This document shows, one piece after another, positions 4,625 to 57,700 of a DNA stretch of 64,000 nucleotides. The translations under genes and the position numbers were made by a program. The notes under the pieces were generated by a model. The model was not told where the DNA came from, ran no database searches, and saw nothing but the letters and a program-made list of their open reading frames with translations. The first letter of the stretch is position 1, and each line of letters begins with the position of its first letter. This stretch comes from Mortierella sp. BCC40632 (Eukaryota > Mortierellomycota > Mortierellomycetes > Mortierellales > Mortierellaceae), in assembly GCA_011634665.1 (NCBI GenBank), contig WAEK01000003.1, positions 1,740,001-1,804,000 of the forward strand, given 5' to 3'.

Positions 4625-6601
4625 TTATCCAGCCACTCGAAGAGGAGCTGGAAGTGTCGAGGCATGACTCGACAAGGGCGAGTCCATGGCATCTCGAAGT
4701 TGTGTTGTTTCGTCCAATAGAGGCTTGGTCACTCCTCGTCTCAAAGTCTCTTTCTTTTCTCCTTCTTCTTCTTCCTCCTCCTCGACCTCCACTTCCTCCT
4801 CGGCTTCTTCTTCGTCCTCACTACGAACATCCTCACTGTTTTCACCCTTCAGTACCTTGGCCACCACACGGCCAATCATGACAAGCCAGAAAACCAGGAC
4901 TGCATAGAGTGAGAGGAGCAAGAACTGGAAACCTTTGAGCACATTCGCACTAAGGTAGATACCCTTGGATGGTTCCCAGGCCATGACGGCATACTTGGGA
5001 GCCTCAACAAAACAAGACCAGACAATGATGCCATAGTAATAATGTCGAGACAGGACCCAGGTGATGACGAAAAAGACAAAGCCCACGTCCGCCATTTGAT
5101 CTTTGTGCATGTACTTGAGCATCTTGCAGGCGGCAAGGACAATGTCTGAAAAATCCATGGCACAGAGGACAGCATGACCGACCGAGGTGAGGTTGAAGGA
5201 GTAAGAGAATCCGATGAGGAGACAGGTGATGATGTGATGAATCAAAAACTCGAGGAAATCCTTGCGACGCTTCTCAATCCCAAGCAAGGCAAGGACGAGT
5301 TGTTGAAGCCAAAAGGCAAACTGGATCAAATAATACCATTTCATGGTTGCATCGAGTTGTGTCTTGGGGTAGTCATGCCAATAGTAGGACGTGTCAGACC
5401 AGTACGACGACTGATACAAGAGACTCATCCCAAACGTCCACATGCATCCGTCGTACAAGACCAACCAACCTTGCTCAGCAAACCGCAGCAGCTTGCCCTC
5501 GCGTGCATGTTCCTCCTTTCGACGCTTCGCAACTGTGGCCTCAGTTTCGTCTTCAACTTTTTTACCATTCAGGTTTTTGCTTTTTTTGTTCTTGGGGATT
5601 CCATTCTTTTTCGGTTCTCCAACATTAAAATATTGTCCGAGTGGGATAAAGACGAACGTCATGGCAGCTTCACGGAGGGCTGTCCAGATCATCATCCACA
5701 GCAGTACCATGTACAAATCATTCCAACCCTTTCCATAAACCACCTTTCTCTCGCCCGTGGTCTCGTCCAAAAGGATTGTCTGATACTGGAGGGCCATGGC
5801 CATGGAGGACCAGGCTTCGTTCGGATTAAACTCGTTCAGTCTTGGTTTGGCCCACTTTTTGACCATTGCCGGTCCACCCATGGTCGCGGCTGCTGTCCAA
5901 CCCTGGGGCAATGCACTCCAAATCGGTGGAGGGATCAACGCAGTCATGGTCGCAATCCAATCGACACGGTGGCCATCTCTTGCTTCTTTCGAGACAACGA
6001 GCACATGCGAGAGCAACATGGCCATGATGACGGAGCAGGAGAGAACCAACTGGTGTTGAACCAAAAACGAAGCCCACGTTTGTTCAACATGTTTGGGAGT
6101 GATGGGCATCGGTGCTCCGTGAGAATGATGGTACCGGGAGCCGTGTGGTAGTTTCTTTAGATCAGTCCCGTGCAAAGGTGGAGACGAGACATGGTCATGA
6201 AGTTCGTGGCCATTTTCTGTCCCGTGAGTCCGATGGATGAGTGGGTCCGTGTGTGTTCGCCTCATCCAGAATTGAGTAGCACTGCTGCCTTCGGGTGGGG
6301 AAGGGGAGCGACCACGGGTTGGGTCGTTGTGGTTATGTCGCCGGTGATCATAGTGAAAGGGTTGGCCTGTGGTAGAGTCGATACTGGCCTTTCGACGCAT
6401 CGAGTTAGATCGTTCGCGTGCCGTCATGCGCGGACGGAGAGATGCCTCGTTCGATTGCATCCTTGAAGCGGTAGCGGAGGATATGGCACTTGATGAACGA
6501 GATCCTTGGGACGAGGTAAAGGTATCGGCAGTCGCCGAAGGGGAAGAGGATCTGGCGGGGGTATCGAGGAGAGGAAGAGTGGCGGCAATGGGATCCTGCA
6601 T
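4625..6601 (-). CDS. LAG1: Ceramide synthase (LAG1/LAC1 family, TLC domain)
   Basis: A single-exon gene encodes 658 residues. It should N-acylate sphingoid bases with fatty acyl-CoA in the endoplasmic reticulum membrane. The TLC/Lag domain occupies roughly residues 370-600 and contains the catalytic pair HH at 455-456 in EFLIHHIITC. The acidic motif AMDFSDIVLAACK, typical of Lag1 proteins, follows about 25 residues later. Several hydrophobic helices flank these motifs. Residues 1-170 are Ser/Pro/His-rich and probably cytosolic and disordered. The C-terminal tail after about residue 600 is strongly acidic with a long Glu run, a possible CK2 target as in yeast Lag1/Lac1 (inference). The protein is longer than yeast Lag1 (about 411 residues) because of these two extensions. 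Which paralog it represents cannot be told. The frame open on the opposite strand is a shadow. Confidence 0.93.
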   Translation of the reverse strand: MQDPIAATLPLLDTPARSSSPSATADTFTSSQGSRSSSAISSATASRMQSNEASLRPRMTARERSNSMRRKASIDSTTGQPFHYDHRRHNHNDPTRGRSPSPPEGSSATQFWMRRTHTDPLIHRTHGTENGHELHDHVSSPPLHGTDLKKLPHGSRYHHSHGAPMPITPKHVEQTWASFLVQHQLVLSCSVIMAMLLSHVLVVSKEARDGHRVDWIATMTALIPPPIWSALPQGWTAAATMGGPAMVKKWAKPRLNEFNPNEAWSSMAMALQYQTILLDETTGERKVVYGKGWNDLYMVLLWMMIWTALREAAMTFVFIPLGQYFNVGEPKKNGIPKNKKSKNLNGKKVEDETEATVAKRRKEEHAREGKLLRFAEQGWLVLYDGCMWTFGMSLLYQSSYWSDTSYYWHDYPKTQLDATMKWYYLIQFAFWLQQLVLALLGIEKRRKDFLEFLIHHIITCLLIGFSYSFNLTSVGHAVLCAMDFSDIVLAACKMLKYMHKDQMADVGFVFFVITWVLSRHYYYGIIVWSCFVEAPKYAVMAWEPSKGIYLSANVLKGFQFLLLSLYAVLVFWLVMIGRVVAKVLKGENSEDVRSEDEEEAEEEVEVEEEEEEEGEKKETLRRGVTKPLLDETTQLRDAMDSPLSSHASTLPAPLRVAG

Positions 6602-8282
6602 GTGCCGAGGACACTAGGAGGAGGAGGTTTTCTTTTTCTTTTTTTTTTCTCTCGGCTTGGGATCTTGTAGACGAGAGAGAGATGAGAGAGAGAGAAAGAG
6701 AGAATGTGTGTGAGAGTGTGTGTGAGAAGAGAGAAGAGAGAAGAGAGAAGAAGAAAAAGAAGAGAGAGAAAAAAAAATGAGAAACAAAAGGTGGCGGCAG
6801 AGACTCGGAGGGTATTTATCCCGAGTTGCCCCCCATTAGGCAAATCTTTCTCTCTCTCTCACCCGCTGCTGCACTGTATAGACAACACACTGCGCGGACC
6901 CCTTTGTTGTTGGCGGAACTTTCACTTAGCCCATCGCATCATGCGTCAGTTCTCTTTCTCTCTTTCTTTCTCTCCCTCTCTTTCTCTCTCTCTCTGCTCT
7001 CGGACTCTCTTTTCTCTGCGCACTTTTTTTCGTTTTCCTTTTCTACTCCGTTCGGTTGGAGGCGTCAAAAATCTAGTTGGATTGCTCCTCTTCTTACTTC
7101 ATCTCTCATCTCTCTCTCTCTCTTTCTTTCTCTCGTACTCTCACATTCATCATCTCTCGCACTTTTCTCTCGCAAGAAGCTATGTGCGTGTGCCCTTGCA
7201 TTCGACCTCCTTACACCCCCATCCATGCTCACTCTCCTGGACCGCTGCAAACGATACCTCGGACTGATGGACTGAACAGACAGACAGACTAAGACGTGGT
7301 GTAATTGTGTTTTTTTTTTTTTTTTATGCGAGCAAGCGGATCAAGACAGTAGGACCGGTGTGTGTAAGAGAGACACTCCCTTCTATTCGTCAGAAACTGG
7401 ACAGAAAGAGAGAAGGCGCGTGTGTGTTTCTTTGTGCGAGAAAGATGGAGTGTGTCGGTAGTGGTGGTAGTGGTAATGGTGATGGTGGTGGTGGTGGTCA
7501 AAGGACAGAGAAATCGAGCAAAGAGAACAAAAAACAAGAAAAAGAAAAAGAAAGGAGAGAAGGAGAGAAGGAGAGAGAGAGAGAGACCCATTCCAGTTTC
7601 CCATTCTCATTCTGTCGCACCCCCAGGACAATACATCCAAAGGGGGCGCCGTCCTTTTTTTTCCTCTTCTCCTCCTTCTTTTTGTCTTGTTGTTGTATGC
7701 GTACACATACAGACAATACACACACATACACTACTCGCACAAATAATGACTGATAATCGTCCCGAGGACACATCCGCACGCGGCAGGGTACCACCAAATA
7801 CCTCTCAATCTCTCGTTCGAGCAGAGCAACGGCCATGACAGTCTGCGCATTTTTGTCCTCTGATGCGTTCATTCCGACTATTCTCACCCCAACCTTATTA
7901 ATCCATGCGCAGACACACACACACACACAAGCCCTCTTCTCCTCCTCCTTCGCTTTGATTTGCTGACAAACTAGCTCCTGTCTCAGCGGCCTTCTTAATC
8001 AGCCTCTTGAACAAGAGTCAAGCGGACGAGTGTACTGGATGACAGCCTCTCCAGCCTCAAAGCCAAAGGAAGCCACGCAGGCACACCACTCACACACACA
8101 CACACACACACTCTCTCTCTCTTTTTGTCTTTTTTCTCGGAGCAACTTCAATTGAGAAAAAGACCCACCGGATTATTTTCTTCAGATTTAGCTCAGTTGA
8201 CAACGTCTGGCTCAAATTCACGACCTCGGGAAATCATTTACTCGCTCCGGAGAAAAGGCACATGTCCGGTTTACCCATCCAT

Positions 8283-16586: not shown

Positions 16587-19500
16587 ATGGCCATTCATGG
16601 GAGCGGGACTCCAGTGGCCGCAATGACATTCTCGGATCGATTCTTCAGGTAACTTGATCATTCTCCTCATCCTCGACCTTCCTTCGCTCTTTCTCTCTCT
16701 CTCTTTCCTCCGCTCTTTGCACATTTGCCTTCGCCTTTCCCGCGCATTGCGACCTAATTCGGACACAGCCACGTGCGAGCTCTGCCCATTGGGGGGGTTT
16801 CTCCCTCTCTCTCTCTCCCCCCTCTCCACCCTTCCCTATCCTATCCCCTGACTGAGTGGATGTATGAATGCATGGGACCATGGATCCATGAATACGCCAT
16901 TCCTCTATCCATCGTTTTCTCATCGCGATCTTTTCTTTTGATGAATTCGTCTGCTCAATAGCTATGAGACCTTCAAGGTCCTTCGGGTACGCGAGTAAGT
17001 GTGGAGGGTCCGACATCCAATCGTCCGATTCAACGGAATGTGGTTTTTTATTTTCCTTTTGCCGACATGCCCCCTCTCGCCTCCCACACGCAAGCACGCA
17101 CACTCCATGAGCAACATGATTGTCCCCATGGGAGAGGGAGAGACAAACAGACTTCAGGACCCGGACCCTTCTGGAGTACAGAACTTTAGTCAAAACAAGG
17201 ATGCGCGACAAACTGAGCACAGGCCAGCCTTTTCTCTCTCTTTCTTTCCTTCTCATACGCACACAAGAGAAGGATTGAGTAGTGAGAGTGTGCTACGTGT
17301 CCCACACACGCCCAACTCCCGGGGCGCGTGTGTGTGTGTGTGTGTGCGTGTTTTTTTTTTAGAAGCAACCCCGAATTGACATTGCCCACAAAGGACACAA
17401 CTACACCGTTCATCTCATTCTCACCCAATGGCTAATCTCAAGAGTAGGGTAGTAATGAGAAAGCCAAGACACACACATACAGAGATACAGACACACTCGT
17501 ATTTTTAGGTCCAGGGTCACTGCCGACCACAAGGACCAACAGACTGACAACATCAGGAAAACACGAAAAGGGGAGAGAGAGAGAGAAAAAGAAAGATAGA
17601 GAGAGATGAATGAGAGACGGGGGGAGAGTGAGAGAGTGAGAGAGAGTGAGAGACAGCCAGGAGAGAGAGAGAGAGGGATAGAGACATTGCCAAAGAGTAC
17701 GCGACTAATTTGCTGTTGCATCGTATTTTTTTCTTGTGCGTGTGTGCGTGCGTGTTGTTCTCGGCGTGACCAGCCGTCGGCTAGGGGCGATCTACCGCAT
17801 GTTCCAAGCTGCAATCCTGCTCTACATTGCCTCATCCATCATCCTGCAGCAGCGGTATCTCAAGACAGAAAATATTATCAACGGCAAGTGAACATTGCAT
17901 TGCATTGTGAGCGGCTTTTTTTTTTTTTTATTTGGAAAAAAAAAAAAAAAAAAAAAAGCAGTGATCACCTGGAATCGGATGCTAACCCTTACTGTCATGT
18001 CTTCTTTTCTCCCAACTTCTCTAGGAGCTGTCCGGGTGACGCTCAAGGCACCCGTGGATGGCCTGACAACACCCGAGTACTGCACAGCAACACCACGGAA
18101 ATGCCTCTACTGGAACGAGAATGACATTCTGTATGAACCGGGAGTCGATGGCGCCCTGATCACCACTCGTGCACAAATCACCCAGTACGGACCATTCGAC
18201 AATCAAACACGTCCAGCAGACAACCCACAGACTCAATGCGATGTCAACCTCCCCAGTGCAACAGGATGCGATCCTTATCGAGCCCCTTCCACCCTCTTGC
18301 TCCCAACCTCCTATGTCGCCGATATTGAACGCTTCACCCTGATGTTTGAACATTCCATTCGAGGACAGGCCACAGGTCTACAGATCCGCTCCGGAAACAT
18401 GGAGTATGGTCTATTACGGGACTCGACCTCTGGAAAAGTCGTCCGAATGTTTACGAACGAAAGTCGCTCCACCATGGCACAAGATGCCCTTCAATCCCTT
18501 GCCCACACCAGCAATCAATCCATCTCATCCTTACCTAAGGGGTATCGTCTTGCAGGCGATGTCATGACCGTGGGCGAGTTTTTAAAAGCTGCAGGGGTGG
18601 ATTTGGATGAACTTTCAGAAGCCCCCACCGTCAAGGCTAACGAGACAGTGAGGTCATCGGGCGTAGTGGTGATCGTGGTGGTCCAGTATGCGGCCAGGGG
18701 CTGGAACCCCAATCGGATCAGCTACGAATACCTCCCCAAAGCAATCCCGGATCAGGAATACAAGGTCATTGAGACCATTCGCGACTTTCGAGGCGGGAAT
18801 AGGGTCGAGATTAACCGTCATGGGTACGTGTGTGGTTGTTGGCAAACATATGACGAGCAAGATGCTAGGGAAAAGGAGAGAGAGAAAAGAGAGCTAAGGA
18901 AGCTGCATGCAGTAACTCACATTCCATCCTCCTTTCTCCCCTTTACCTTGATACCATAACAGCATTCGTATTGTTTTCTCACAAGCCGGCCAATTGGGCC
19001 AGTTTTCACTCATGACCTTGTTGACAAACCTGGTCGCTGCGATCGCTCTCTTCAAGGTAGCCAACATTATCGTGGAATTAATGATGCTTCGACTTCATCC
19101 TCAGAAAAAGGTGTACGTTCGTGCCAAATACGAAAACACTCGACAAAATCAAGCATGGAAAAGGGGTGAAGGGGGTATGGCGCCGCCCCAAAGCGCTCAG
19201 CTTTCTGAAGTCACCGATGGTGCAGGTGTGGGTCAACCACAACAGGGTTCCATGAGAACCATTTCGTCCATGGGCTCAGGTTCTTCAGGAGAAGTGGGTC
19301 GGAACAAAGAGAATGCGATTGAGATACTTCCTGGCTCGGAAGGAACTTTGAGCGGACCAAAGGAACCCATAGAAAATGGTCACGAATCTGAGCATGGAAT
19401 GACCAGTTGGGAAGACACGGAGGACGAAGAAGAGGAAGAAGAACAAGAGGAGGCTCCATTGGAAGCCGAGGAAGGAATGACCAAGAAGGATACGTATCTT

Positions 19501-22269
19501 GATCAAAAAGATAACGGCAGTATTACTACTTGGCAACGTCATGGGTCTGACTCGGAGATACTCTGGGTACCAGGCTCATCCAAGAACCTTCTCAGGCGAT
19601 CCGACTCTCCCATCTCCGGAAACGGTACTTCAAGTAAACTCCATACCTTATCCACCAAGGGTAACAGCACTCTTCCGAATGACATTGAGCAAACCAAGTT
19701 TGGGGGAAGCTCGCAACGATATCACTCAGAGTATTCCAAGAGTACAATCCCTGTTCCCGCACTCAAAGGCAACATGGTCGCAGATGACATGGAGATTGAG
19801 ACACGGTTTGGACCTGTTCGTCCCAATGAATTCAAGGGATTCAATCCAGGTGGCATTCCGTTGAACAGCACACCACCATTGTCACCTTCGGTCACACAGA
19901 CCAGGATCGTTCACAACTTGATGTGTGGTATGGCCACACCTGAACGGCAGACTGTAGAAGGACATTCTAGCTCGACCATGGCAAGCGCAGCAGCCATAGC
20001 GCGTCATCGAACCAACCAGTCGCCCGCTGCCATGCAAGCCGCCTCTCCATGTCCCGTGTTCTTTGGACCTGACACACCTAGCCAGCATAACTCGACGCCT
20101 GCCTCGGGACCTGGACGTCGAAGACAGAGAAGGCATGCAAGTCATAAGGAAAGCAGTGCTCAGGATGGATCTCGAACCAACGCTGTACTCTCTTCTCGAC
20201 ATTCTTCCAGCTCTCTTTCGTCCTTGACTTCTTCTTCTTCTTCCTCTTCCATTGCCTCATCCTGTGAGGCCTCAGTGGACAGTGCTGGAGATAACCGGAC
20301 AGTGAACACGGCAATGAGTCTTCATCTTGGATCAGGTGTCCGATCGACCTCCCCATGGTCTTTTGGTATTCCAGACAGTCCATTGAGAGATTACGGTAGT
20401 GGATGTGAGAGTGTGCATGGTATGTCCTCCTGTGTTGGTGGTGGTCTACCTCCACCAACAGCACTCGCCACTAGTCCCGGTTCTGGTTCTAGAAGTGGAT
20501 TCAAGAGACGTCGAAAGGATGACTATTCGGCCTCTGCGGGGATCAATACTTCAGCAGCAGCAGCAGCAGCAGCAGTGACAAGACGAGTGTCAGAGGAGAC
20601 ACCTCGATCGAGTACGATAGAGGATATCAAAGGAAAACAAGTCAGTCATCATCCTGGTTCACACTCTCAACTTTGGACAAGAGTCGACGCAAGCGAGTCT
20701 TCGTCTTCGTCTTCGTATTTACAGACGACCACAGGATTTGATTCCACCATGGTCTACAATGCCCAGAATGTCTCTTCTTCACATTTCCGATTGCCTCCAT
20801 CTTCAGGGATTTTATCGGACGCTGGAATGGATTCCGACAAAAAAGTATTTAGAGAGGAACCAAAAGAATTATCAACCACGATGAGTGCGACACTTTTGGG
20901 AAAGCAACCCGTGAGATCTGGACATCATCATCAGGGTTTGCGGACTTCATTGTCGTCACCATGTCTTTTAGGATCCTCAACCTCATTGTCACAACCGATG
21001 CAAGATGAGAGTCAAGGACCGTCTGCAGAGGCATCATCTTCGAGTGCCATCAAGGCATCTGGTATCGCCTCTTCATCTTCCTCCTCCTCGAATCTTTATG
21101 CATCCCCTCTTTTAGTCAGTGATGTCAGTACCGGTCAGGGCATTGGATCTGGAGCTTCGACACTTGTCACACGATTGAGTGACGAAAGTAGTCGAGTCCT
21201 ACAAGGGGGCTTGCCTTCTTCTCAGACAATGTCAACATCTTCTTCCAGGACATCGAATCATTTCAAATCGGATTCTTTGACCGCGGGACAGAGTGGACAG
21301 AAACCTCCTGCTCGGGATATCTCTGCATTATACCCACGACCCTCTCAGACTCATCTCTGGAGGAGACAAAGTGAACCCTTGTCCACGTTGTTCAGTTTGA
21401 ATACTGGAGGACAACAGGGAACAAGTCTTTCAACTGCCACTGCATCCTCGACTATGGGTGGTTTGAGTACGACTACTGTCAACAGCTCTCATCAAAGGGT
21501 ATCCAGCGAGTCGGTGCGTGCTCAGGAGCAGCGGTTGAGTACGAATCGATCCATTTCGGAAAGTACAAGTCGTCCTAGTATTTTGTCCGCTTCCGCCTCG
21601 ATTTCGACCTCCATGTCTTCTGTATCCCAGAACGCAACCCCTGGATCTGACCTACGATCGTTTATGCCTCTGGAGAGTGCGTATTCGATGGATTATAGCA
21701 GTGTCAATACGAGTACGGGATCCAGGTCTGGAATAGATGGAGACAGTGGTGTTAGTAGCAGTAGTCCGACTACAGCCATTTATCCATCGGCCTCTTTGTC
21801 GATGGGCGGTGCTATGCCTTATCGAAGCTATCACGGGTTCCCTTCTTCGACCACGACGGCAACTACATCGTCTGCGTCCATCAGCAAACGAATGTCGACG
21901 ACGGTTGGATCGAGTTCTCATGGATATAGTCGATCAGTTCATTCGACCATTGGCAGCAGTACTGGACAGGGTGAAAAGACTAGTACCAGTGCTACAACCA
22001 ATTCAGCAGCCGCAGCTAGTACTGGTGTCAACATGAGCACGAGTCCTTTGACGAGTCATCCTCCATATCAATACAACCAACCAACCCACAACTTCTTCAC
22101 CAGTGCGGTGACGATGGGTTGTACGACGACCCTGGCTGGTACAGGGATCCAAGTCCTCGGGAGCACCATCACCATGGTCACGGCCGATAACAAGAGAATT
22201 CTTCTTCGACGAAGTGAGCCCTTGATTCTGAGTGAAGGCGTTGGAGAAGAAAAGGCCGCCCGTATGTAA
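16587..22269 (+). CDS. P2X: P2X-type ATP-gated cation channel with giant tail
   Basis: Five exons (16587-16648, 16962-16994, 17774-17883, 18025-18823, 18963-22269) join in frame to 1,436 residues. P2X receptors are trimeric ATP-gated cation channels with two membrane helices. The N terminus has the family signature YETFKVLRVRDRRLG (22-36). TM1 is about 36-57, the ectodomain about 58-345 and TM2 about 350-378. Before TM2, GIRIVFSQAGQLGQFSL (335-351) matches the conserved G-I-R ... G-x-A-G-x-F region. Ligand-site candidates are K76 (TLKAP) and N296/R299 (GWNPNR). The trafficking motif YXXXK is at Y386-K390. The ectodomain has few cysteines, as in protist P2X, not the ten of vertebrates. The remaining roughly 1,045 residues are Ser/Thr/Gly-rich and acidic near the membrane. 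Intron 3 needs a GC donor. In amoebae P2X acts in contractile-vacuole membranes; location here is unknown. Confidence 0.93.
17884..17889 (+). other. GC-AG splice donor of P2X intron 3
   Basis: Exon 3 must end after 17883 to keep the reading frame into exon 4 at 18025. The intron then begins GCAAGT, the usual form of the rare GC donor. A GT three bases further in (17888) would shift the frame and destroy the ectodomain. Confidence 0.8.
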
Positions 22270-22735: not shown

Positions 22736-23985
22736 CTAGTCAAACAAACTAAACTCGGGAATAAGATTCACAGGCAACAAGGGTGGTGGATGATGTGATC
22801 CAGGTCCCGATCCAATTCCCGTAGCAACAACAGCAGAAGCAGCAGAGGCAGCCGCAGTAGTCAGGTAATGCGCCGGGTAGGCCGTCGGGATCGATCCCAT
22901 AGAACTAAACATGTGTGTAAGAGAAATAGATCCAGGGGGTGTCCTTGGACGATTCATATGAATCGGTTGTGGTTGAACCACCGTCAAAGAATCCTCAGAG
23001 GACAATGATGCCTCTCCAGAGGATGGTACCGTCGTCGCCACTGCGTTGGAGGAAGAAGAGGCACCATTGACCGTAGTAGTGGATCCAGAGACAACTGACA
23101 TAATTCCATTGGACCCAGTGATCGTTGTCATGGTTGAAATCGTTGTAGACCCACGCACGAGTTTGGCCCGCTCACGTTCTAGAATGGTTTGGTGGTTGAT
23201 AAAAGGTGGTGATCGCAGTGCTTTACATGCACCACAGTTCTTGACACATTGCCAACACCGTTCCTGGGGTGCATTGCAGAACCGACACCGCTCTTGAGAC
23301 CAGACAATATTGGTACAAGGGGGTGATGCGGATGTGGAAGGTGGATTCGAGGCAGAGGTAGGTGGTGGAGTAATGGGTAGAGGAGTGGAACCAGGTGGAG
23401 GTGCCCAATGGAGACCACCCCCATAGTGCTGAGCTCCGCCATTGGCTTGATTCGGAGGAGCAGTGTCCTGGGCAGATCCTGAAGAGGATACAATCGGTCC
23501 AGGGCATGGATGAATATCCAAAGTAACTCCATGAGTGTGTCCCTTTTGACTAGAAACAATGACTCCCTTGTGATCCGGGTTGTTGCGTATGGACAAATCA
23601 TCCTGAACTTCTTTTGACAAGGGTAAAGCGACTGCTGCTCCGACTATTGTGATATCATTCAAGACTTGTTTGAATCCAAGAATGTCTTCTTCTTTGGTCA
23701 TATAAGGATGAAAGATCTCCCATCGACGAAGACGAAGGCTATGAGGCAAGATATCTTCATTCCTGAGCATATCCCTGAGCATGGAGGCATCGTTGGCAAG
23801 ACTGGTTTGGTGACGACGATAACGAGAGGAGAGGAATTCTAGGTTGGGGAACTTTATCAGCATGACCAATGGAGAAGGGAATTGAGAAGAATCTGTAGAG
23901 TCCATATAAATCTAAAGAGAAAAAAGGACATGTTTTTAGGGTGTGGTTAGCTCTTCTCTTGTTTTCTTTTTCTTTTTCTTTCTGC

Positions 23986-24024
<39 letters not shown>

Positions 24025-24741
24025 CACCTCGCGTGATCTCAATTGCATTCAAACATAAAAATAAAGGCCCAACATTTACCTCGCGGACAAAATCAACCAA
24101 TCGATTCTCTTTACGGAACCGACGCAGGACAGCATAAATCTCCGAGATCAGGGACCGACTTCCTCCTCGATCTCGATCCCGTTCATTCTCTTGATGCTTC
24201 AACCGTTGATCTTTTTCTTCCTTGTCTTGATCCTTTTCCTCTTCTTCCGATTCACTCGACTCCCAATCTGATCCAGATTTGTTGCCCATCGACTTTTTCT
24301 GTGTTGGATAAAGTCTTTTTCTTGGATCCCGCTTTTTGGCAAAGACAATCTTGGAAGAATCAGATGCTGACACAGATGATCCGCTCGATTCTGCCGTTGT
24401 TGTGGTCGATCCACTGGCCAGTGCAGTAGCCGCAGCAGTAGTAGTGGTTGTGGTAGTAGTGATAGCGGTGGTGCCATCAACAGCAACAACTGGAGCTGTC
24501 AACTTGGAAGATGCAGAAAAAGAAGCTAGATTGGCGTATTCTGACAAGGGCACGAACCGGACTCTTTTCCAAGCATCTGGCAAGTTCAAGAGAAGATAAC
24601 GATGATACCGGCAAGTGTCGAGGAATCGAAAGATGGCCAAAATGTCAAGATAGCTCATCACTTGGAGAACCAATTCTGGGGGGAGTTTAGCAAAGATGGA
24701 TCTTTGATCGATCCATTGAATTGGATAAAGTGGAGGAGCTT

Positions 24742-24773
<32 letters not shown>

Positions 24774-24796
24774 TGATCCTGGGCGTGAGTGTCCAT
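22736..24796 (-). CDS. F-box protein with six-cysteine cluster
   Basis: Two exons (24796-24080 and 23911-22736) join in phase 0 to 630 residues. A poly-Gln run (8-16) precedes an F-box at about 34-76 (FAKLPPELVLQVMSYLD), so the protein probably recruits substrates to an SCF ubiquitin ligase through Skp1. Residues 95-235 are Ser/Thr/Ala-rich, then acidic with Lys. The second exon has a region with no recognised domain (240-375) and a Pro/Ser-rich linker. A cluster follows with cysteines at 448, 451, 458, 461, 465 and 468 (C-x2-C-x6-C-x2-C-x3-C-x2-C), which could bind zinc. The last 130 residues are low complexity. Typical F-box substrate domains such as LRR or WD40 are not visible. The substrate is unknown. 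Confidence 0.85.
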
Positions 24797-25591
24797 GAGT
24801 ATGAGATAGAGTGGTGGATAAAGCTCTGTATGGATTTTTGTTGGAGATGGAGGGTTGTTGTATCAGAGGCTCGTTCACGAAACCCCTAGCTGTTTCTGAC
24901 TTTTTTTACGCCGACGAGCATGAGAAGGAGGAGAGGAATTAGTCCAACGAGTTGATCTCATTCCAAAAAAAAAAAAAAAAAAAAAAAAAAAGTCGAGCCT
25001 AGTCAATGAAGCATTGCTTTTGCTTTTTACCTTTCTGGGTCTTTTGTGTGGGGATTGCGTTTGAGAGGGAAAAGGGACGGGTGCTGGAAAAAGAGGAAAC
25101 AAATGGAGGACAGGATGTTTAAGTAGGAAAGAGGAAATGCAATGCACCTCAGCTTTGTCAGCAGAACTTCTTCATGAGCCTAAACACTTTTTTTTTTCTT
25201 CTCTCTCTTCTCTCTCTCTCTCTCTCTCTCTACCAGAAAGCGTTGTGCTGTACGTGGCCCCTGGATTCGTACGTGGTCATATCCTCTGCCTCCCCCCTCC
25301 CCCTCACTCTCGCTCTGTGCGCAGCGATACTGCAAGACGTTGAACAACACGCGCAGACAGACAATGAATATGTTGTAATATGTCTGAGGAGGGTTGTGAG
25401 CCTATCATGGCGATGGCCTTTCAGGTATTTAGAAAAGGTATGGACCAAAAGAAAGAAAGAGAGAGAAAAACCAGACTCGGTCCCAGACCAAGAATGCTTG
25501 CTTTTATGCTAAATGTCCTTTTTTGTTTTTTGTTGTTTTTTTTTTCTTCGTTTTTTCTTCTTTTTTTTCTTCTATGCCATGTGTGTATCCA
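24797..25591. other. Intergenic between F-box and hydrolase genes
   Basis: This contains the F-box gene promoter side and the 3' flank of the hydrolase gene. An A27 run (24965-24991), a TC tract (25213-25231) and T-rich blocks near 25520-25570 are the only features. No exon is supported. Confidence 0.5.
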
Positions 25592-26849: not shown

Positions 26850-29123
26850 AGTGGGATAAACAAACAAAATTCTGTCCACTACTCCCTAAACGGAAAAGGA
26901 AAAGAAAAGAAAAGAAAAGAAAGTATGAAAGAATCACTTACGCTGCATCAACATCTCTGGTTCCCAGAGAAGAGCAAAATGATCTCCATTGATAGCATCC
27001 AAGGTCGAGAATGGTAACGAGGCATCCTCCTCTCCAATATCAAGCCATCCAGAAATCGTCAGAATCACATTCGCTCGCTTGTGGTCATGAATCGACACAA
27101 ACTCAAACGTATCAATCCCTGCCGTCCGTCTAGCCATCTTTTTCATGGCCAATCCAGATCCTGTCACGGCAGCTCCACTCGTGATCACAGCAATACCTCC
27201 ACTCCCCGCCAAAAACGCCGAGGCTGCTGTGGCTGTGGCACCTGTGATATGAGCTCCCGCAAGAGCGGCTCCAATTCCTGCTCCAATTACCGGTGCAAAA
27301 AGTCCTGCAGAAAGTCCCAGGACCAAACCACCTCCTACAGTGGCCAAACCCATCATGATCATTCGTCTCTTGCGAGATTCTCGATTCCTGGAAGTTGTAT
27401 CGGGCTTCAAGAGACCATCCGAGGAAGGGGTCGATTCCTGTTGGAGTTGCTTCATGATGGCCTTTTCCAGGATCACGATCTCGTCCCATTCCAACCCAAG
27501 ATACTGTCCCACAGTCTTTAACAGGACACGCGCACGAGCGTCATAGACGGAATCCGAGATGGAAATCAAAAACAGATCGGCAATCATTGTCCAGCGTAGG
27601 TCGACAGTGATGGCTCTTTGACTACTGATGGATGCTCGAGAACTCGTGACCGAGGATTCATAAGTTCCGCTGTCGGTCGAGATTGCTCCAGAGGATCGCT
27701 CACTCGATTGAGACGAAAAGGAAGGTCGAGGGACACTGTTGCTGACCACTGAGTCCGAGTCATGTGACGCTGCTGCTTCGCCCATTCCCCCTTGAGTCAT
27801 GGAGGAAGGGAGGGATGATTGCCCCTGACCCGCACCAGAAGGAGAAGCAGGAGAAGGGGGAGAAGGAGGAGGAGGAGTTTGTTGAAAGGTGGTGAGGCTG
27901 GCATTTGAGAAATGGCGAGAGTGGCGTGGCATGGGTGAGGAACGACCTGAGGTGGACAGGCCCGCCTGGTCCACCTGTTGGGAAGAGACAACACGTTGGG
28001 TGCCATCGGCGACAAAGGATTCGAGGAGATCCTCTGGCTGGATCATCATCTGAGGCAACTGCGCGATAGTCCTTTGGGCTGATCGGGGATTGGGAGAGTC
28101 ATAGAAGGAAAAAAAAAGAAAAGAAGAGAGATAGATGGTGTGAGCAAGAAAAGAAAGAAAATAGGCCGTGGGTATAATTACCGAGCAGAGAAAAGAAGTG
28201 AGAAAGAAAAAGGGAAAGGGAAAGGGAGAGAGAGAGAGAGAGGAGACGGACCAATCTAATCGATTACGATCCCCGATCCATTCTTTCTGCACCCAGAAAG
28301 ACAAGGTTTTCCTGCAAAACATATTAATTTTTTTGGCCTCGAAATAATTATGAGCACTTCTCTCTTTCTCTCTCTCTTTCTCGCCCTTTTCTTTTTCCAC
28401 AAGGGTACAAAGGAGAACGAGAGAGAACAGGAAAGACCGCAGAAAAAGGCATGGCCAATAAAAGAGTCCTTTAAAATAGGATCGACAGGGACTGGGAAAA
28501 AAAAAAAATGAAAGAGAAAGAATGTGTGTGTGTGTGTGTGCATTTCCTGTCCGAACGTAAACCTCCTCATCTCTCAAATCTCTTTTCTCTCTCTCTCTCT
28601 CTCTTTCTCCGTCTCTTTCTGCGGAGCAATGCGTGCACCCAAATCAGACACTTTTTCCCTTTTTTCTTTTTTTGTTGACCGCCCTGTTAACCCGTTGCTT
28701 TTTGAAGAAAAAAAAAAAAAAAAAAAAAAAAAAGATGGAGGAAAGAAAAGGTGGGGAGAACAAGTGCTTGAATTCCTCTCTTTCACCACAGTCACCATCC
28801 ATTCAAGAGACATGCATAGAAAAGAGAGAGCAAGAAAAGAAAGAGAACACAACAGCAATCACAGCAGCAACAACAACAACAACAACAACAACAACAGCAA
28901 TAACAAAACTTACTGCCCGAGTCAATATCAAGGTGTCTTGACAGTTGGTTAATGAGCTTGGAGACAAAGCTCTCCAGGCTCTGCTTCGCGTGTTCTGCCT
29001 CCTTCCCCTCCAGTGCCTGGAAAAGACGGTTGGCCGTAACAAGGCAAAGGCCAGCATACGCAAACGCCTGCCCTTCGGTCAAGATATCCTTGGATGCTCC
29101 AATCTCACACGGGGCACTATTGC

Positions 29124-37251: not shown

Positions 37252-39631
37252 TTAACGTCGGTATTCGGGCAGCTGATCATCAAACAGCACCGGGAGTGGT
37301 CCAGCCTGGCGCACAAGTGCAAAATGTGGATCATGCGCATGGTAAGGATCCTCCTCACGACAGGTTCGCAATGCCATTGGGAACTGTGAAATGGTCGCAT
37401 GAAGAGTCGACACGGCAGGTGGAAGATATGCCTGGTAATCTGGCAACATGGGTGCAGGAGGAGGAAGAGTTGGTCTAGGTGCCACTATTTCGACTTGGGC
37501 TAAAAAAAAAAATAAAAAAGAAAAAAAAATAAAGAGAATAGAAAGTTGCAATCGATGTTAGAACAGATCTTGGAAACGTCCCTCCCTTTCTTCTCACAAC
37601 CCTTTTTCAATACATACTTTGGCTCTTGATCTCTTCAGCTTGACGATCCTTCTCCTTGCCTCCCTTGATTCGAATACATAGCGTCAATGTGTAGTTGATT
37701 TCAATGTACTTGGCCTTGGTCGTCGGAGTGAGGACCAAACCCGCAGCAGAATCCGCGGCCGGGATCTTGACATTTACAATCCTCTCCCAACTTCCAAACC
37801 TCAATGGCCAACCCTCATTTCCAAGACTGACGGCCATCACTTTCTTGACAACACGTTGGGTATCTGACATACCCTTGACACGAGTAATCAACTCTTGATC
37901 CAACTGGAAGTGAGCTCCCAGGATCACGGCCTGTTGACCTTCATAGACCGTTCCGGGCAAGAATGGGTGGAACTGAATCTTGATCGGAAGAGACTGTCCC
38001 AAAGTCAAGTAACGGGATGAAAGGGACCAGGAGAAGGGGATCGATTTTTTCTTGCTAAACTCATCGACCCACACAGGTTGGACCCGTGGTCCTTCGATCT
38101 CGGCCAGGTCCACGTTGGTGTTGAGGACATGGATCGACTGCGTGGTGGTCATGAGTGGAGTCGAAGGAAATGCAGGAGCAGATGTTGTTGAGGACGAGGA
38201 CGAAGGTGGGTTGACACTGCTCGGTGGGGGCGAGGGTGGCAGTGAGGCTGCAGGCGAAGGTGGAAGCGAAGTCGGGGGCGAGGGGAACATGGACGCAGTA
38301 ATCTGTCCAGTCGTGATCGGCGGGGGCAAGGGCGGACGCGATGACACCGACGACACCGAAGCGAGTGAAATCGAAGACATGAAATTAGTCGTCGACAACA
38401 AGGAGACAGATGGTCCGGTGTACTTGACTAGTCTAGCCTGGAAAATGTACCGCATCCCGCCCCGGGAGTGCTCACTCGATGAAGGCCAGAGAGGATCGAT
38501 GACAGTCTCGACCTCGCGGTGGTACCTGCCCTTGGGAATCATGCCAGGCCTGCGGTAACCATCAATGGGAAGCACCCAGCGATGCTTCTTGAAGACCTCG
38601 TCCGTGTTCAGGCGCGTGGTCTCTCCAGTAAAGGCCTCATTGGAGACTAGGAACGGGGGTGAGAGAAAGACAGAGCAGAGTCAGGATCGAGGGCTCAAAC
38701 GCATATAGAGGAGGAGGAGAAGAGGAACGGGAAGATTTTTTTTTTTTTTTTTCGTCCAGGGCGAATGGTTTGTATTGGGATGGGTAGAACAGAGACTAAA
38801 TAAAACGGTGAGGCACGCATAGGAGAAGGGGGCAAGGATGAGCAGAGACCGCCTGGGAGAGAAGGGTCAAATGGGAGCAATGAACAGTGAAAAATAGGGG
38901 ACCAAGAGAGAGAAATGGAGAGAGAGAGAGAGAGACGCGGTACCAATGCTCGTGGGACAAGAAAAATTGAACCAGGCGGATGTATTCGTCCCTCCCGTTT
39001 GAGTATGGATTGGGCGAATGTGGTTCGCTCCAGTAGTAGCTGGGTGAGAGGACAAAAAGGCACGGTCTGGTATTTTCATGTATATTTAGGCCAAACAAGC
39101 GAACCAGCGCACAGCAGGCACCTGGGAATTCGGGTTTGAAGTAAACACAGTGCCTCCAATGAGAGAAGAGGAGGTCCGAACAAAAACCACGAGAGTGCCA
39201 TACATTGGCAGGGTGGCACCAACATCCGAGCTGTCAAAAAAAATAATCCCCCTCTCCTCCTGTGAGGTCTGTCCCTTGCTGCCTCAAAGAGATAGGACCT
39301 TACCTGTCATGGTAGACGCGGCAATAGCCGTAAAGGTAATCTCAATCTCATCTCCAGGACAGTCGCTTGGAGTCTCAAAGACAACAGTCGCCTTGACGAT
39401 CGCAGGTGCCTCAGGGCTACCATAGAACAATGGTAGCTCCTTATGACCAATCTTGACAGACTGGTCCGAGTGCACATGGATCGTCAGAGACTTTTGTCGT
39501 TGGCGCTTCTTGTTGTTGCTGCTGCTGCTGCTGCCAATGCTACTGTTGCTGCTGCCACTGTCACTGCTGCTGTCATTTCCACCATGGTTGGATGATTTGG
39601 GCGCCTTGGATCGAAAGAGACTGATGGGCAT
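37252..39631 (-). CDS. Arrestin-like trafficking adaptor
   Basis: Three exons (39631-39304, 38646-37618, 37499-37252) join in frame to 534 residues. The arrestin N domain begins after a Ser/Asn-rich start. It shows VKIGHKELPLFYGSPEAPA and VVFETPSDCPGDEIEITF, typical of fungal arrestin-related proteins. The C domain follows in exon 2 (LGQSLPIKIQFHPFLPGTVY). Between them lies a Pro/Ser-rich loop (about 190-245) rich in PPS repeats. The last exon ends in QLPEYRR, an L-P-x-Y motif of the type bound by WW domains of the Rsp5/Nedd4 ubiquitin ligase. Such adaptors direct ubiquitination and endocytosis of plasma-membrane transporters. The first intron is 657 bases and GA-rich. The cargo cannot be predicted. 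Confidence 0.85.
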
Positions 39632-43047: not shown

Positions 43048-45240
43048 CTAAAAATCTCTGAATGTCATGACCATCTCTGCAAGTCTCAACTCTTGAATCT
43101 CGAGCTGTTCTAATATTCCATTCAGCTTATTAATCTCAGCCTTTTCCGCCGCATTCAACAACGCATCGTTCGCCTTCACATCCGTCCGCTCACACTTTTC
43201 CAAAAGAACAGACCGCCGAGTACGCTCAACAAACCGACGCTGCCTCAGGTTGGCCATTGCATGATAGAGATTCTCGCTCAACGAGTCTGCAGCCCGAGGT
43301 AATACAACCTCCCACAAGTAAAAAGTCCTGGATGGGGTACGGTCGTTTGTCTTTGGGACTTCTTGCAAGTTCAGCACTCCAAAAGTACAAAGCGTCGTCA
43401 ACTTTTCACGTACATCCTTGACAGGCATCATGGAAAACTTGGAGATTTGCTTTTCTTCAAGCTTGCCCTTGTCAAGGAGCATGTTGATAATCCGGACATA
43501 GGGCAAGCCGTACCGCGTCGCAACAATGTCCTGGATAAGATTCTTTTTCAAGATCTTGTTGGCCAACTCGAGTTGAATAGAGTATTGACCACTGCGTCCT
43601 GCATCCTTCTTCAAGATCTTCATCAGGTCGTCTTCAAGAATCTGCATATACTTCTCAAGACATTCGCTCGCTTTAGGCTTGGCGCTGTTGAAACCCAAGT
43701 CGGCAACATCAAACTCGAGTGTGTCTACCAAGTTGATGTCGGCTGGAAGAGTGTTGAACAAAAGCATGGTATTAACGGGTGTCGACAGACCCTCTTTGCA
43801 ATTGATCATTTTCTCCTCGGCAATGCTCAGAATAGCCTCCATGATCTTTCTGGCAGTTGGATTTAGACGAGTCTCGTAAAGACCAGCGATTTGCTAGTTT
43901 GGTAATGGATAAACAAAAAGGGGTGGGAGATATTATTAGAGATATGCCAAAATACGGCACACGTTGGAGGACAGAATATCACTCATTGACCGGGGCGGGA
44001 CGTAAAGAAAGAGTTACCATGTTGCGCCACCGAATAATGAATCTGTCAAAGTTAACCTTGAAGAATACATCTCGTTCGACTTCTTCAATAATTTGAAAGT
44101 CACCATCTGTCAACTTGCGACGCTTATCGGTGCCATAATCATCCATGCCATCCGAGACTGTATCCAGTGTACGTTTCTAATAAAGAATTGGACCAGAGAG
44201 GGTATCAGACGCTGACCCAGCAAGAGTGACTCTTACGAGGTCCTTTAAGAGAGGACAAAATTTCCAAAAGAAAAAGAATGAAAGAAAGAAAGAAAGAAAG
44301 AAAAGATAATTACCAGGCCAACAATGGTGTTTCTGTTCAACTCCTGTCCCTTTTGCGCTACAATGTTTCGGCGGATGGTGGCCATTTCAGCGGCTGTCGG
44401 TGGCAATGTCATTTTGTCCGTCTCTTTCTTTTCCTCGGCCATCTCGCGATCAATTGGAGCCAACGAGTCCGAGGGTCTGACTGCAATAAGACATTTTTCC
44501 TTGACCATCCTGGTAAAGACCTTTTGGATTAATTGAGCGCCTAGATCAAGTCATTCATGGAATTGGTTACGTTGTTGGTCTTTGCTCTTTGGAAATCCCT
44601 CTCCCTCTCCCTTTCTTTCTTTCTTTCTTTTTCAAGCATCAACTCATGACAAGAGAGTAATAGGCCATTCTTACGGGCTGTTCGGCCACCGGATGCTGGC
44701 TTCGCAGAGTTGTCGCCAATCAAGTCCGTAACTCTTTGCTTTCCATGAACGAGGACGCTTAAAATCACTTCTTCTCCTTCGCGATCGAACCATAGCTTTG
44801 AGTATTGGAGCACCTTGGGAATCAATGCTCGATGCAACGTCTCCTTTTTGTCCATCTCATAATAGGTCACCACCCTGTTTCTTTCCTCTGACTCTGCATA
44901 GTAGGCGATATTGTGTTGGATCAGAACCAAAAGTGACTCTCGGACTTGACGCGGCTTGAGCTCTGTGAACTTTGTAATCAAAGGGACGGGCATGCGCCCC
45001 TTTCTGATGAGAACATTGGCGACTTTCTATGATGATGCAAATGGAACACCATGGGAGGAGAAAGGAAAAGAGAGAGGAATATCCATTTAATAAAGAGAAG
45101 AGACCCTTTTCTTTTTCTACAGGTTGCTCGAGTGTGCCTCGGACATTGTCGACTCCTCTGTGAATTGACCGCCTTTTTGGGTTTTACCTCGACAATGGGG
45201 CCAAAATGCTCCTTTATGATTAGGCGACACAGGCGATTCT
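43048..45240 (-). CDS. RPC82: RNA polymerase III subunit RPC82 (POLR3C)
   Basis: Five exons were found (45240-45188, 45026-44675, 44540-44314, 44176-44018, 43893-43048), joining in frame to about 545 residues. The product is part of the RPC82-RPC34-RPC31 subcomplex that helps RNA polymerase III open promoters of tRNA and 5S genes. It starts with NRLCRLIIKEHFGPIVE, the first winged-helix of the family. Then come LKPRQVRESLLVLIQHNIAY (second recognition helix), DRFIIRWRN and a C-terminal winged helix plus coiled coil (PSRTFYLWEV, ending VMTFRDF). The first exon found begins with two bases of a split codon after the acceptor CTACTAG, so a small upstream exon carrying ATG is missing from my model. 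Exons on both sides carry clean GT-AG signals. The gene is divergent from casein kinase 2. Confidence 0.9.
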
Positions 45241-54712: not shown

Positions 54713-57700
54713 GCATTGGGCATTGGGGCGTTCAGTCAAGAGAGAGTTTGTGTTGTTTTTTAGTTTACCGCCCTTCCCTGTTGTTGTTGGTGTTCATTCG
54801 CGCGTGAGGTTGCAGGGTTTTTTTTTTTTTTTTTTTTTCTTTTTTCTTTTTTTTTTTTTTTTGCCGCGCCTGCTTTTCTTTGCACTCTGGCAGATGCAAC
54901 AACCAGAACAGGGGCGGTAGCCGCCCTCTTTTCCTCCTCGCCCTTAACCTTAATTGCGTTGGCCGTATTTTCTGTATGACCAGCGCTAAATGCACCCCTG
55001 GACAAGCCCCATGCAGGCCCGCGCTCTACTCCGTTTCCCTTTCTTTCTCTTTTCTCTCTCTCTCTCTCTTCTCTCTCTCTCCCTACTCGATCTACTTTCT
55101 CCCTCTGGAATGTACCTTGTGTTCTACGTGTGTGTTTGTTGAACCAACCAACTAACCGAATCAAACCCACAACAAACTCAAATAGCTCCTCGGCACTCTC
55201 TCCTACCCGGTCCTCACTCCTCCCATTCCCTTCTCTCCCCGCACGGACCGCCCTGCCCTCCATCTCGACCCAACAAGGGAACCATCCCCAGAACAACACC
55301 AACAACCCCGGCAACACCAGCCCATCCGCCGCACCTCGACGGGAGCTGGATCGTGGACCTGCTGACTTGAGTAACCCTAGTACGGGGCTTGCTGCCGCAC
55401 TGCTCGCTGGAAGAAATCAACTTGCAAAGACTCAACAGCAGGGCCGTCCACCCACACAGCCATCATCCCAGTCACAACAACGGACTCAACAACCACTGGG
55501 ACTAAAACTCTCAGGCACGGGTCGAAAGCTGAACCATGAGTCGACACAAGAGCCTCCCACCATCAGCACCGGCCACGTGCGCATCCCAGTTCCCGATATC
55601 ACCTCTCCCGTCACAAGAAGCTTTCGAAGCCCTCTCAACACAAAGCAGTCTGAGCTCGAGGGCAACCACGACCACCTGATCTATCAACGAAGAACATCCT
55701 TCACTCTCTCTCCAACCTCCTCCAATCCCGAGCTTGCAGAATCCCAGACCGATAGTCAATCAGGATCCTACGACACACCTCAGCCCGAGCACTCTCTTCG
55801 GAGAAATGGTGTCAAGTATGGCGCTCACTCTTATCGTACGGGAGGTCCCAGCATCTCCTCCAACATGTCTGCATTCTCAGACGACTACCGTCAACCCCGT
55901 CCTCGACCCCAGACTCGAGCTCAACATCACCACGAGTCGAGTCTATTGGGGACATCCTATGACTCGGCCATGTCTGGTCATCAGGATGGCGCTGGAATGC
56001 ATTCGCGGTATACCTATGCTGGAGATGAACTGGACCAAGGCTCTCTTCCAAGTCAGAGTTACACCGAGACCCTTCGCCTCCAAGCCCGGTACAACCAAAC
56101 AGGAGAACCTTCGAGTTACCCCCACTCTTATTCGAACCCCGGTCGATTCGGATCCTCCTTGGAATCAGACCGGATGCATTACCCAGGACAAGGTAACAAG
56201 AACATGGGTCACCGAGCAGAGAAACTTTCCCAGCATGATCACCGCTCGAATGGACGTTCAGACGTGACCCCTGTGGGATCGTATCCTCATACTTCTGGTG
56301 GTGGTGGCACTGCGGAATCGGTTCATTCTCTCGATGAAGCAGATGATCTACAGGATCAGCTGGCAACCGAGACTGAATATATCATGACTCGAAACACTGA
56401 ACTCCTCAAGATCTTGAGTATTCGGGATGAAGAAATCCAGACACTCCAACAGGAGCTGGACCATACCCTCCGAGTAATGCACGAGTACGAGGAAGATTTG
56501 ATGACAATGCACACTGCAGCAGCCAAGCCCTACGAGAGCTACCACAAGACATTGGATCAAATCGGACATGAGATGACACAGCAGGATGCACTTGTCCAGG
56601 GATACCAAATCGAAAACGAAAAGTTGACCAGTCAACTCAAGTCATCGATGGATCTCCGACAAGAGGCCGAGAAGCGACATTTGCGTACTGTAGAAAGTTT
56701 AAAGACCGAGATTTCTCAACTTCGCCAAGATCTCGAGAATGCTGATCAAGAGAGATATGGACGACTCGACCTGAGGGTGATGTTGAACGAATCTCAGGAT
56801 GCACATGAGCGATCACTTCAGAGTTTCAAGGACAAGGAAGAAGAATACATGGCCGAGGTTGGGGAGTTGAAGGCACAACTTCGATTGACAGAACAGACGC
56901 TCGAGGATGAGCGCAAGTCCAAGCTTGAGGAGATGCAAAAGATTGAAAAGGATTTCCAGGATGTCCGTGTCGGGTTTGAGATTATGATGAAACAGATGGA
57001 GAAGCATGGACATGGATCGACGTATGGATTGACCATCCCATCTATGTTGAAGCGAGGCTCTTGCTCATCGTCTGCGGATGATGGACAAGCTGATACTACA
57101 GCTGGAGCAGAACTTGAGCGAGACATTGGTCTTCTCAAGGCCTCTTTGCTTCATAGTCCAAGCAAATCCTCTGCGACTCAGTCCTCCACTCCTTCTCCAC
57201 CCTTGTCGGAGAAGCACAAGACGGAACGTATGGGTACTGCCCCTTCCAAGGACTTGGATCGCAAGTTGATTTCGACCGAGTCCTTGGTAACGGCCAACAC
57301 TGCTGACGGCTCTGCTGAAATGGAAAAGTCAGATCTTGAGCAACGGATGAGTAAATTCGAATCGGACATGCGACAGAGTCTTTTGCGAACCATTTCAATC
57401 GAGAGCCTTGCCAGTGTACGTTCCTCGACGGGTACGGCCATTCCGATGGCAGCTCAGGTAAAGAAGCGACTTCTTCAGAACCAAGTCTATCAACATTCAG
57501 GTCAGGCAGGCACCTCCAGAGACGACGTTCGGACGATGACCAAGAGCGAGGAACAAACTCTAGCCAACAAACTAAGGGACCGAATCGGTGTTCTGAGTGT
57601 TGAGAACAGAAAACTTCGTTTGGAGGCTGCGGCCTTGTCACAAACTCTGCGACATACACAGGCTGAACGAACTCGCAAGGTCACCAAGCTCGAGGAAGAA

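What the first reader, a model, noticed from the sequence alone, without database searches (positions are those of the whole stretch)
16587..22269. Fungal P2X receptor with a cytoplasmic tail of over 1,000 residues
The two-helix P2X core ends near residue 390 of 1,436. The rest is a Ser/Thr/Gly-rich tail with acidic and basic patches. Animal P2X tails are at most about 240 residues, so this suggests a scaffold- or phosphorylation-controlled ATP channel. P2X homologs are known from basal fungi and protists, but this tail architecture is unlike any I know.
Basis: partly seen in the sequence, partly recalled or inferred. Interest (0 to 1): 0.88.

Follow-up and report, generated by a model that had tools for sequence, protein, structure and literature searches.

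The report
Fungal ATP-channel with thousand-residue tail
This soil fungus carries a real relative of the animal ATP-gated P2X ion channels, and like its fungal family it has a huge, mostly floppy inner tail with a few strongly preserved spots, a version of the channel for which no description was found.

Summary

The tail is not peculiar to this genome. The 42 long homologs (40 named Mortierellaceae, 2 unnamed) have tails of 650-1,366 residues; 21 relatives outside the family have 7-176. It is mostly predicted disordered but holds conserved islands. The strongest is the last 60 residues (mean identity 0.63; other 60-residue tail windows average 0.20, maximum 0.52), its end motif closing 37 of 43 proteins, predicted as short beta strands, with no Pfam or PDB relative found. 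A juxtamembrane TxDFSDLR-like box is in 19 of 21 outside relatives and 0 of 46 Mortierellaceae rows.

Best reading: an ATP-gated trimer with a lineage-specific regulatory or anchoring tail. P2X identity is strong; gating, location and tail role are inferred. New variant of a known kind.

The parts
16587..16648 (+). exon 1, cytoplasmic N terminus (MAIHGSGTPVAAMTFSDRFF..)
   Evidence: end of it resembles P0028
16962..16994 (+). exon 2, 33-nt microexon coding the YETFK (YXTXK) motif; symmetric phase, so in-frame if skipped
   Evidence: motif present in 17 of 46 homolog models, partial ones included
17774..17883 (+). exon 3, RRLG + TM1
   Evidence: alignment to human P2X2
17775..17849 (+). TM1 helix, about residues 33-57
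   Evidence: helix 31-55 of P0028 model, mapped by the alignment
18025..18823 (+). exon 4, ectodomain (Cys 88, 95, 140, 150; invariant R72 and R278, conserved T173)
18963..22269 (+). exon 5, end of ectodomain + TM2 + whole tail + stop
19009..19095 (+). TM2 helix, about residues 351-379
   Evidence: helix 354-382 of P0028 model, mapped; residues 331-391 mean identity 0.91
19114..19128 (+). YxxxK box, YVRAK, residues 386-390
   Evidence: [YF]xxxK box in 46 of 46 Mortierellaceae rows
19129..22266 (+). cytoplasmic tail, residues 391-1436, mostly predicted disordered by homology to the P0028 model
19768..19878 (+). island A, residues 604-640 (..EIETRFGPVRPNEFKGFNPGG..)
   Evidence: mean identity 0.57; alignment; a 59-residue query over it gives one match in the genome
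20008..20070 (+). island B, residues 684-704 (SPAAMQAASPCPVFFG)
   Evidence: mean identity 0.58
20503..20526 (+). conserved basic stretch, residues 849-856 (KRRRKDDY), NLS-like
   Evidence: mean identity 0.46; related basic string in 34 of 43 tails
22087..22266 (+). C-terminal conserved block, residues 1377-1436 (..TITMVTADNKRILLRRSEPLILSEGVGEEKAARM)
   Evidence: mean identity 0.63; alignment A3; AF2 short strands; no Pfam or PDB relative found; one match in the genome

Best explanation
A fungal P2X receptor, of the deep 'Branch 1' type if fungi belong there as published: three subunits, each with two membrane helices and an ectodomain, form a cation channel opened by ATP on the non-cytosolic side. 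Each subunit carries about 1,045 cytosolic residues, so a trimer would carry about 3,100 residues of mostly disordered chain. I propose that the tail is a regulatory tether: conserved short motifs and the C-terminal beta module bind cytosolic partners and, through basophilic-kinase-like RRS sites, place the channel or set its activity so that ATP-evoked cation (Ca2+) flux is coupled to a fixed partner. Shown here: P2X profile, motifs and (for a homolog) predicted fold; tail length; its family-wide presence; conserved islands. Inferred: trimer, ATP gating, membrane, partners, phosphorylation.
For: Pfam; PDB sequence matches to P2X1, 2 and 4; P2X fold of homolog P0028; YETFK and YVRAK boxes. Tail 650-1,366 residues in 42 of 42 homologs against 7-176 in 21 outside relatives. 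The 44 Mortierellaceae rows of the tree fall on one side of a branch, support 100/99, so one gain of the tail suffices. Conserved islands and C-terminal block; the block is predicted beta, mean pLDDT 73-81 over residues 31-70 of the 80-residue piece, while 728 of 1,120 residues of P0028 have pLDDT under 50. In 26 aligned C termini, R62 and L66 of the RRSxPL string are invariant and S63 and P65 are kept in 90% or more.
Against: No expression, localisation or current data. Vertebrate ATP-contact positions are not all kept: the Lys of KAYGIR aligns with Asn in the fungal NRHGIR, and residue 76, the candidate for another Lys, is K in 35 of 63 aligned rows and Q in 19. This tail has no match to the PxIxIT, dileucine, NPF, PPxY or IQ patterns tried, one LxVP (LWVP at 535) and one 14-3-3-like R..S.P. 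Most of the tail is poorly conserved (residues 857-1365: 0.14). 6 of 43 proteins fail the C-terminal motif pattern (P0057 is a near variant; the other five lack it). The C-terminal model is modest (pTM 0.35).
Confidence: 0.6

Rival explanations
1. The tail is mostly passive low-complexity expansion; only the core matters.
For: Tail mean identity 0.23, 0.14 over residues 857-1365; Ser and Ala runs; predicted disorder. A second high window, residues 752-811 at 0.46, is partly a Ser run and may reflect composition.
Against: Islands A and B at 0.57-0.58 and the last 45 residues at 0.69, recognisable in Actinomortierella too; among rows that reach past TM2, the only short tails in the family are models P0001 (283), P0003 (215) and the partial P0011 (83).
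Confidence: 0.17
2. The tail is a messenger: it is cut free on activation and acts in the nucleus, using the conserved basic stretch as a nuclear signal.
For: NLS-like basic string in 34 of 43 tails; Ser/Thr/Gly-rich composition.
Against: Pfam finds no DNA-binding or other domain beside P2X in the protein, nor any in the two tail pieces tried; no cleavage site was looked for; basic strings also serve lipid or protein contacts (recalled).
Confidence: 0.1
3. A P2X-fold channel that is not gated by extracellular ATP, or works on an internal membrane as in Dictyostelium. Its internal-membrane half is compatible with the best explanation, so the odds overlap.
For: Canonical Lys positions not all kept. 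Dictyostelium P2X lie on the contractile vacuole (PMC3360091, passage; PMC10620158, passage).
Against: [quoted passage not shown] invariant R72, R278, R333 and near-invariant T173 could serve.
Confidence: 0.3
4. Gene-model error: P2X and a downstream gene wrongly joined.
For: No transcript; related proteins are also predictions and could share an error; models P0001 and P0003 have short tails.
Against: One open frame runs from TM2 to the stop; three unnamed-source gene calls (P0076, P0077, P0078) run from TM2 into the tail; the conserved C terminus is in the same frame.
Confidence: 0.03

Closest known systems
Basal fungal P2X homologs (Allomyces, Spizellomyces, Batrachochytrium; Cai 2012, known here only through passages of PMC3853471 and PMC3410928)
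   Same: P2X family in fungi
   Different: Those species were not among the rows compared here; the 21 outside relatives that were (Blastocladiella, Catenaria, Gonapodya, Basidiobolus, Glomeromycotina and unnamed rows) have tails of 7-176 residues
Dictyostelium P2X receptors / 'Branch 1' P2X (PMC10620158, passages)
   Same: Fungi are placed in Branch 1 by that paper; vertebrate ATP-contact residues partly absent
   Different: This one has a tail of over 1,000 residues; no functional data; no Branch 1 tree was made here
Vertebrate P2X7 with its cytoplasmic ballast
   Same: P2X core with an added cytosolic C-terminal region
   Different: P2X7 tail is 239 residues (PMC3360091) with a Zn-coordinating Cys domain (PMC7016195; passages of both); here about 1,045 residues, 7 scattered Cys, no Pfam match in the tail
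Lunasporangiospora selenospora protein P0022
   Same: Nearest homolog: 90% over 321 core columns; tail 1,009 residues
   Different: Model starts at MASAVRVTLKAP, so lacks the N terminus and TM1, and is named cytochrome c oxidase subunit 1

Membership tests
P2X receptor (PF00864) | Profile match above curated cut-off | tested here: met
   59.6 bits against 27
P2X receptor (PF00864) | Two TM helices around a P2X ectodomain fold | tested here: met
P2X receptor (PF00864) | YXTXK/R N-terminal and YXXXK C-terminal motifs | tested here: met
   YETFK at residues 22-26, YVRAK at 386-390
P2X receptor (PF00864) | Canonical vertebrate ATP-contact Lys/Arg set | tested here: inconclusive
   Lys of KAYGIR aligns with Asn, the next residue being an invariant Arg; a paper reports functional Branch 1 members lacking such residues. 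The NFR-motif position was not settled
P2X receptor (PF00864) | Trimeric ATP-gated current | not testable with these tools
   needs expression and recording
P2X7 subtype | Zn-coordinating Cys ballast domain | tested here: not met
   No second Pfam family at E 0.001; the 7 tail Cys are scattered over residues 656-1388

The most novel reading that the evidence does not exclude
Mortierellaceae evolved a receptor-channel hub: an ATP-gated channel whose roughly 650-1,370-residue tail, tipped by a C-terminal module with no match found in Pfam or PDB, recruits its own signalling complex, a fungal counterpart of the scaffold-bound channels of animal cells, replacing the juxtamembrane TxDFSDLR box of other fungal P2X.
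Probability: 0.25. Interest if true: 0.75.

Novelty: new variant of a known kind. Interest (0 to 1): 0.55.

Why it matters
It points to P2X-type ATP sensing in Mortierellaceae and, by the sequences found, in arbuscular mycorrhizal fungi (Rhizophagus, Gigaspora and others). Members of both groups live with plant roots (recalled); whether plant or fungal ATP is the ligand becomes testable. The tail is a defined case of one lineage adding a long disordered, motif-bearing chain to a ligand-gated channel. The wrong database name may be one reason why it has gone unremarked.

Tried and rejected
Paper searches for P2X or purinergic terms with Mortierella, Allomyces, Basidiobolus, early-diverging fungi, Rhizophagus, Mortierellomycota/Mucoromycota, and for P2X C-terminal tails listed no title or abstract start describing this tail. 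Only open-licence PMC papers were searched; of broad queries only a part was listed (20 of 47, 12 of 26, 10 of 1,397, 5 of 837), so say little. Cai 2012 and two other papers were not held.

C-terminal block: no PDB sequence match with the profile; single-sequence phmmer gave three weak matches, best E 0.56; no Pfam family for the window's own block and scattered hits at E 0.019 and worse in other members; Foldseek best E 0.58, read as no match. The model is modest, so a known fold is not excluded. Searches of the own genome gave no second place for the core, the C terminus or island A; that tool scores only its best candidates.

Considered and dropped: calcineurin docking (no PxIxIT here, one LxVP; 20 of 42 others have a PxIxIT-like string), dileucine sorting, 14-3-3 mode I as a general feature.

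Alternative splicing of exon 2: 17 of 46 models have YxTxK, 6 join FFS-like ends to RRLG directly, 23 start elsewhere or are partial. I read this as annotation trouble with a 33-nt exon; real skipping cannot be told.

Rows and limits: the tree dropped 10 partial rows (P0002, P0004, P0011, P0063, P0073-P0078) and never held P0005-P0010; its program warns of long branches, among them the join of Mortierellaceae to the rest, and the root is a long outgroup row. Conservation used 31 homologs after an 85% identity filter. The 60-residue windows include those over islands A and B: highest 0.52 at 612-671; the 77 windows clear of 604-704 average 0.17, highest 0.46 at 752-811. P0003 is near-identical in core to P0061 (tail 1,366), so I read P0003 and P0001 as model differences. 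The TxDFSDLR pattern is a loose one of my own; P0064 and P0072 fail it. could list only proteins of about 790-2,513 residues; searches cover shorter ones. Searches scored only the best 7,983 and 7,992 candidates. P0074 is a partial record, and not all outside rows are named.

Full report
The gene. From the raw sequence and all frames I reconstructed five exons that give 1,436 residues. Three introns are GT-AG; intron 3 is GC-AG. The exon joins reproduce strings seen in homologs. Exon 5 runs from before TM2 to the stop at 22269 without a stop in frame, while each of the five other frames has 35-47 stops, and 300 base shuffles never gave more than 200 open codons in the forward frames.

ATP site. 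Alignment puts Asn where vertebrates have the Lys of KAYGIR, next to an invariant Arg. R72 (61 of 61 rows with a residue there), R278 (69 of 69) and R333 (70 of 70) are invariant; T173 is T in 68 of 70. [quoted passage not shown] ATP gating is therefore likely but not shown.

The tail in the family. A full-length search returned 42 proteins, 40 named from genera that NCBI places in Mortierellaceae and two unnamed (P0033, P0063), with 650-1,366 residues after the YxxxK box. In 21 relatives outside the family (Basidiobolus, Blastocladiella, Catenaria, Gonapodya, Glomeromycotina and unnamed rows) the tail is 7-176 residues. Animal P2X C termini run from 26 to 239 residues (PMC3360091, passage). 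On a core tree of 63 rows, the 44 Mortierellaceae rows lie on one side of a branch (100/99), Actinomortierella splitting first, so one gain is enough; the program warns of long branches there. The window's nearest relative is Lunasporangiospora selenospora, a Mortierellaceae genus. The family also lacks a juxtamembrane TxDFSDLR-like box: 19 of 21 outside relatives have it, 0 of 46 Mortierellaceae rows.

Islands. Mean identity of 31 homologs to the window protein: residues 331-391 (TM2 region) 0.91, ectodomain 0.68, whole tail 0.23, residues 857-1365 0.14, but island A 0.57, island B 0.58, last 60 residues 0.63 and last 45 0.69. The 93 sliding 60-residue windows of residues 392-1376 average 0.20, highest 0.52 at 612-671, which overlaps island A; 77 windows clear of residues 604-704 average 0.17, highest 0.46 at 752-811, partly a Ser run. 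The C-terminal motif is at the very end of 37 of 43 proteins; P0057 has a near variant and five lack it, possibly through model differences. Predicted alone, the last 80 residues form six short strands, mean pLDDT 73-81 over residues 31-70 of the piece, pTM 0.35. No Pfam or PDB relative was found, and one match was found in the genome.

Mechanism. A ligand-gated channel with a long disordered chain, scattered conserved motifs and a likely folded tip kept at the very end is what one expects of a tether that docks partners. That is inference. The RRSxPL string in the tip and other RRxS strings are basophilic-kinase-like (consensus recalled, not tested). Rivals are passive expansion, a released nuclear messenger (NLS-like string in 34 of 43), and an internal-membrane or non-ATP channel; the last overlaps with the best reading as to membrane.

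Novelty. P2X in basal fungi was reported before (PMC3853471 and PMC3410928, passages citing Cai 2012). I found no description of the long tail in the paper searches listed under Tried and rejected, which have limits told there. The sequences themselves are public, 35 of 42 misnamed. I call it a new variant of a known kind.

Noticed in passing
homologs of window 16587-22269: 35 of 42 long P2X homologs are named 'cytochrome c oxidase subunit 1' in public databases, 2 'P2X purinoceptor 2', 3 hypothetical, 2 unnamed: a propagated naming error, since all 42 rows carry the Pfam P2X domain.
   Followed up: partly
16962-16994: A 33-nt microexon of symmetric phase codes the YXTXK motif, whose mutation changes P2X1 current and desensitisation (PMC2704932, abstract and introduction); 29 of 46 homolog models, partial ones included, lack it.
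   Followed up: partly
17884-18024: GC-AG intron (GCAAGT donor).
   Followed up: no
one search hits P0067-P0069, P0071-P0074: Named Glomeromycotina (Rhizophagus, Gigaspora, Diversispora, Paraglomus, Funneliformis) encode P2X with tails of only 7-37 residues.
   Followed up: partly
4628-6613 (-), 23939-24862 (-), 26937-28643 (-), 43051-43893 (-): Neighbouring ORFs match TLC domain, F-box-like, DUF726 and RNA polymerase III subunit RPC3/RPC82 families.
   Followed up: no
37610-38680 (-): ORF with a sub-cut-off Arrestin_C match (22.1 bits, cut-off 27.7).
   Followed up: no
54980-58954 (+): Open frame of 1,325 residues without a Pfam match at E 0.001.
   Followed up: no
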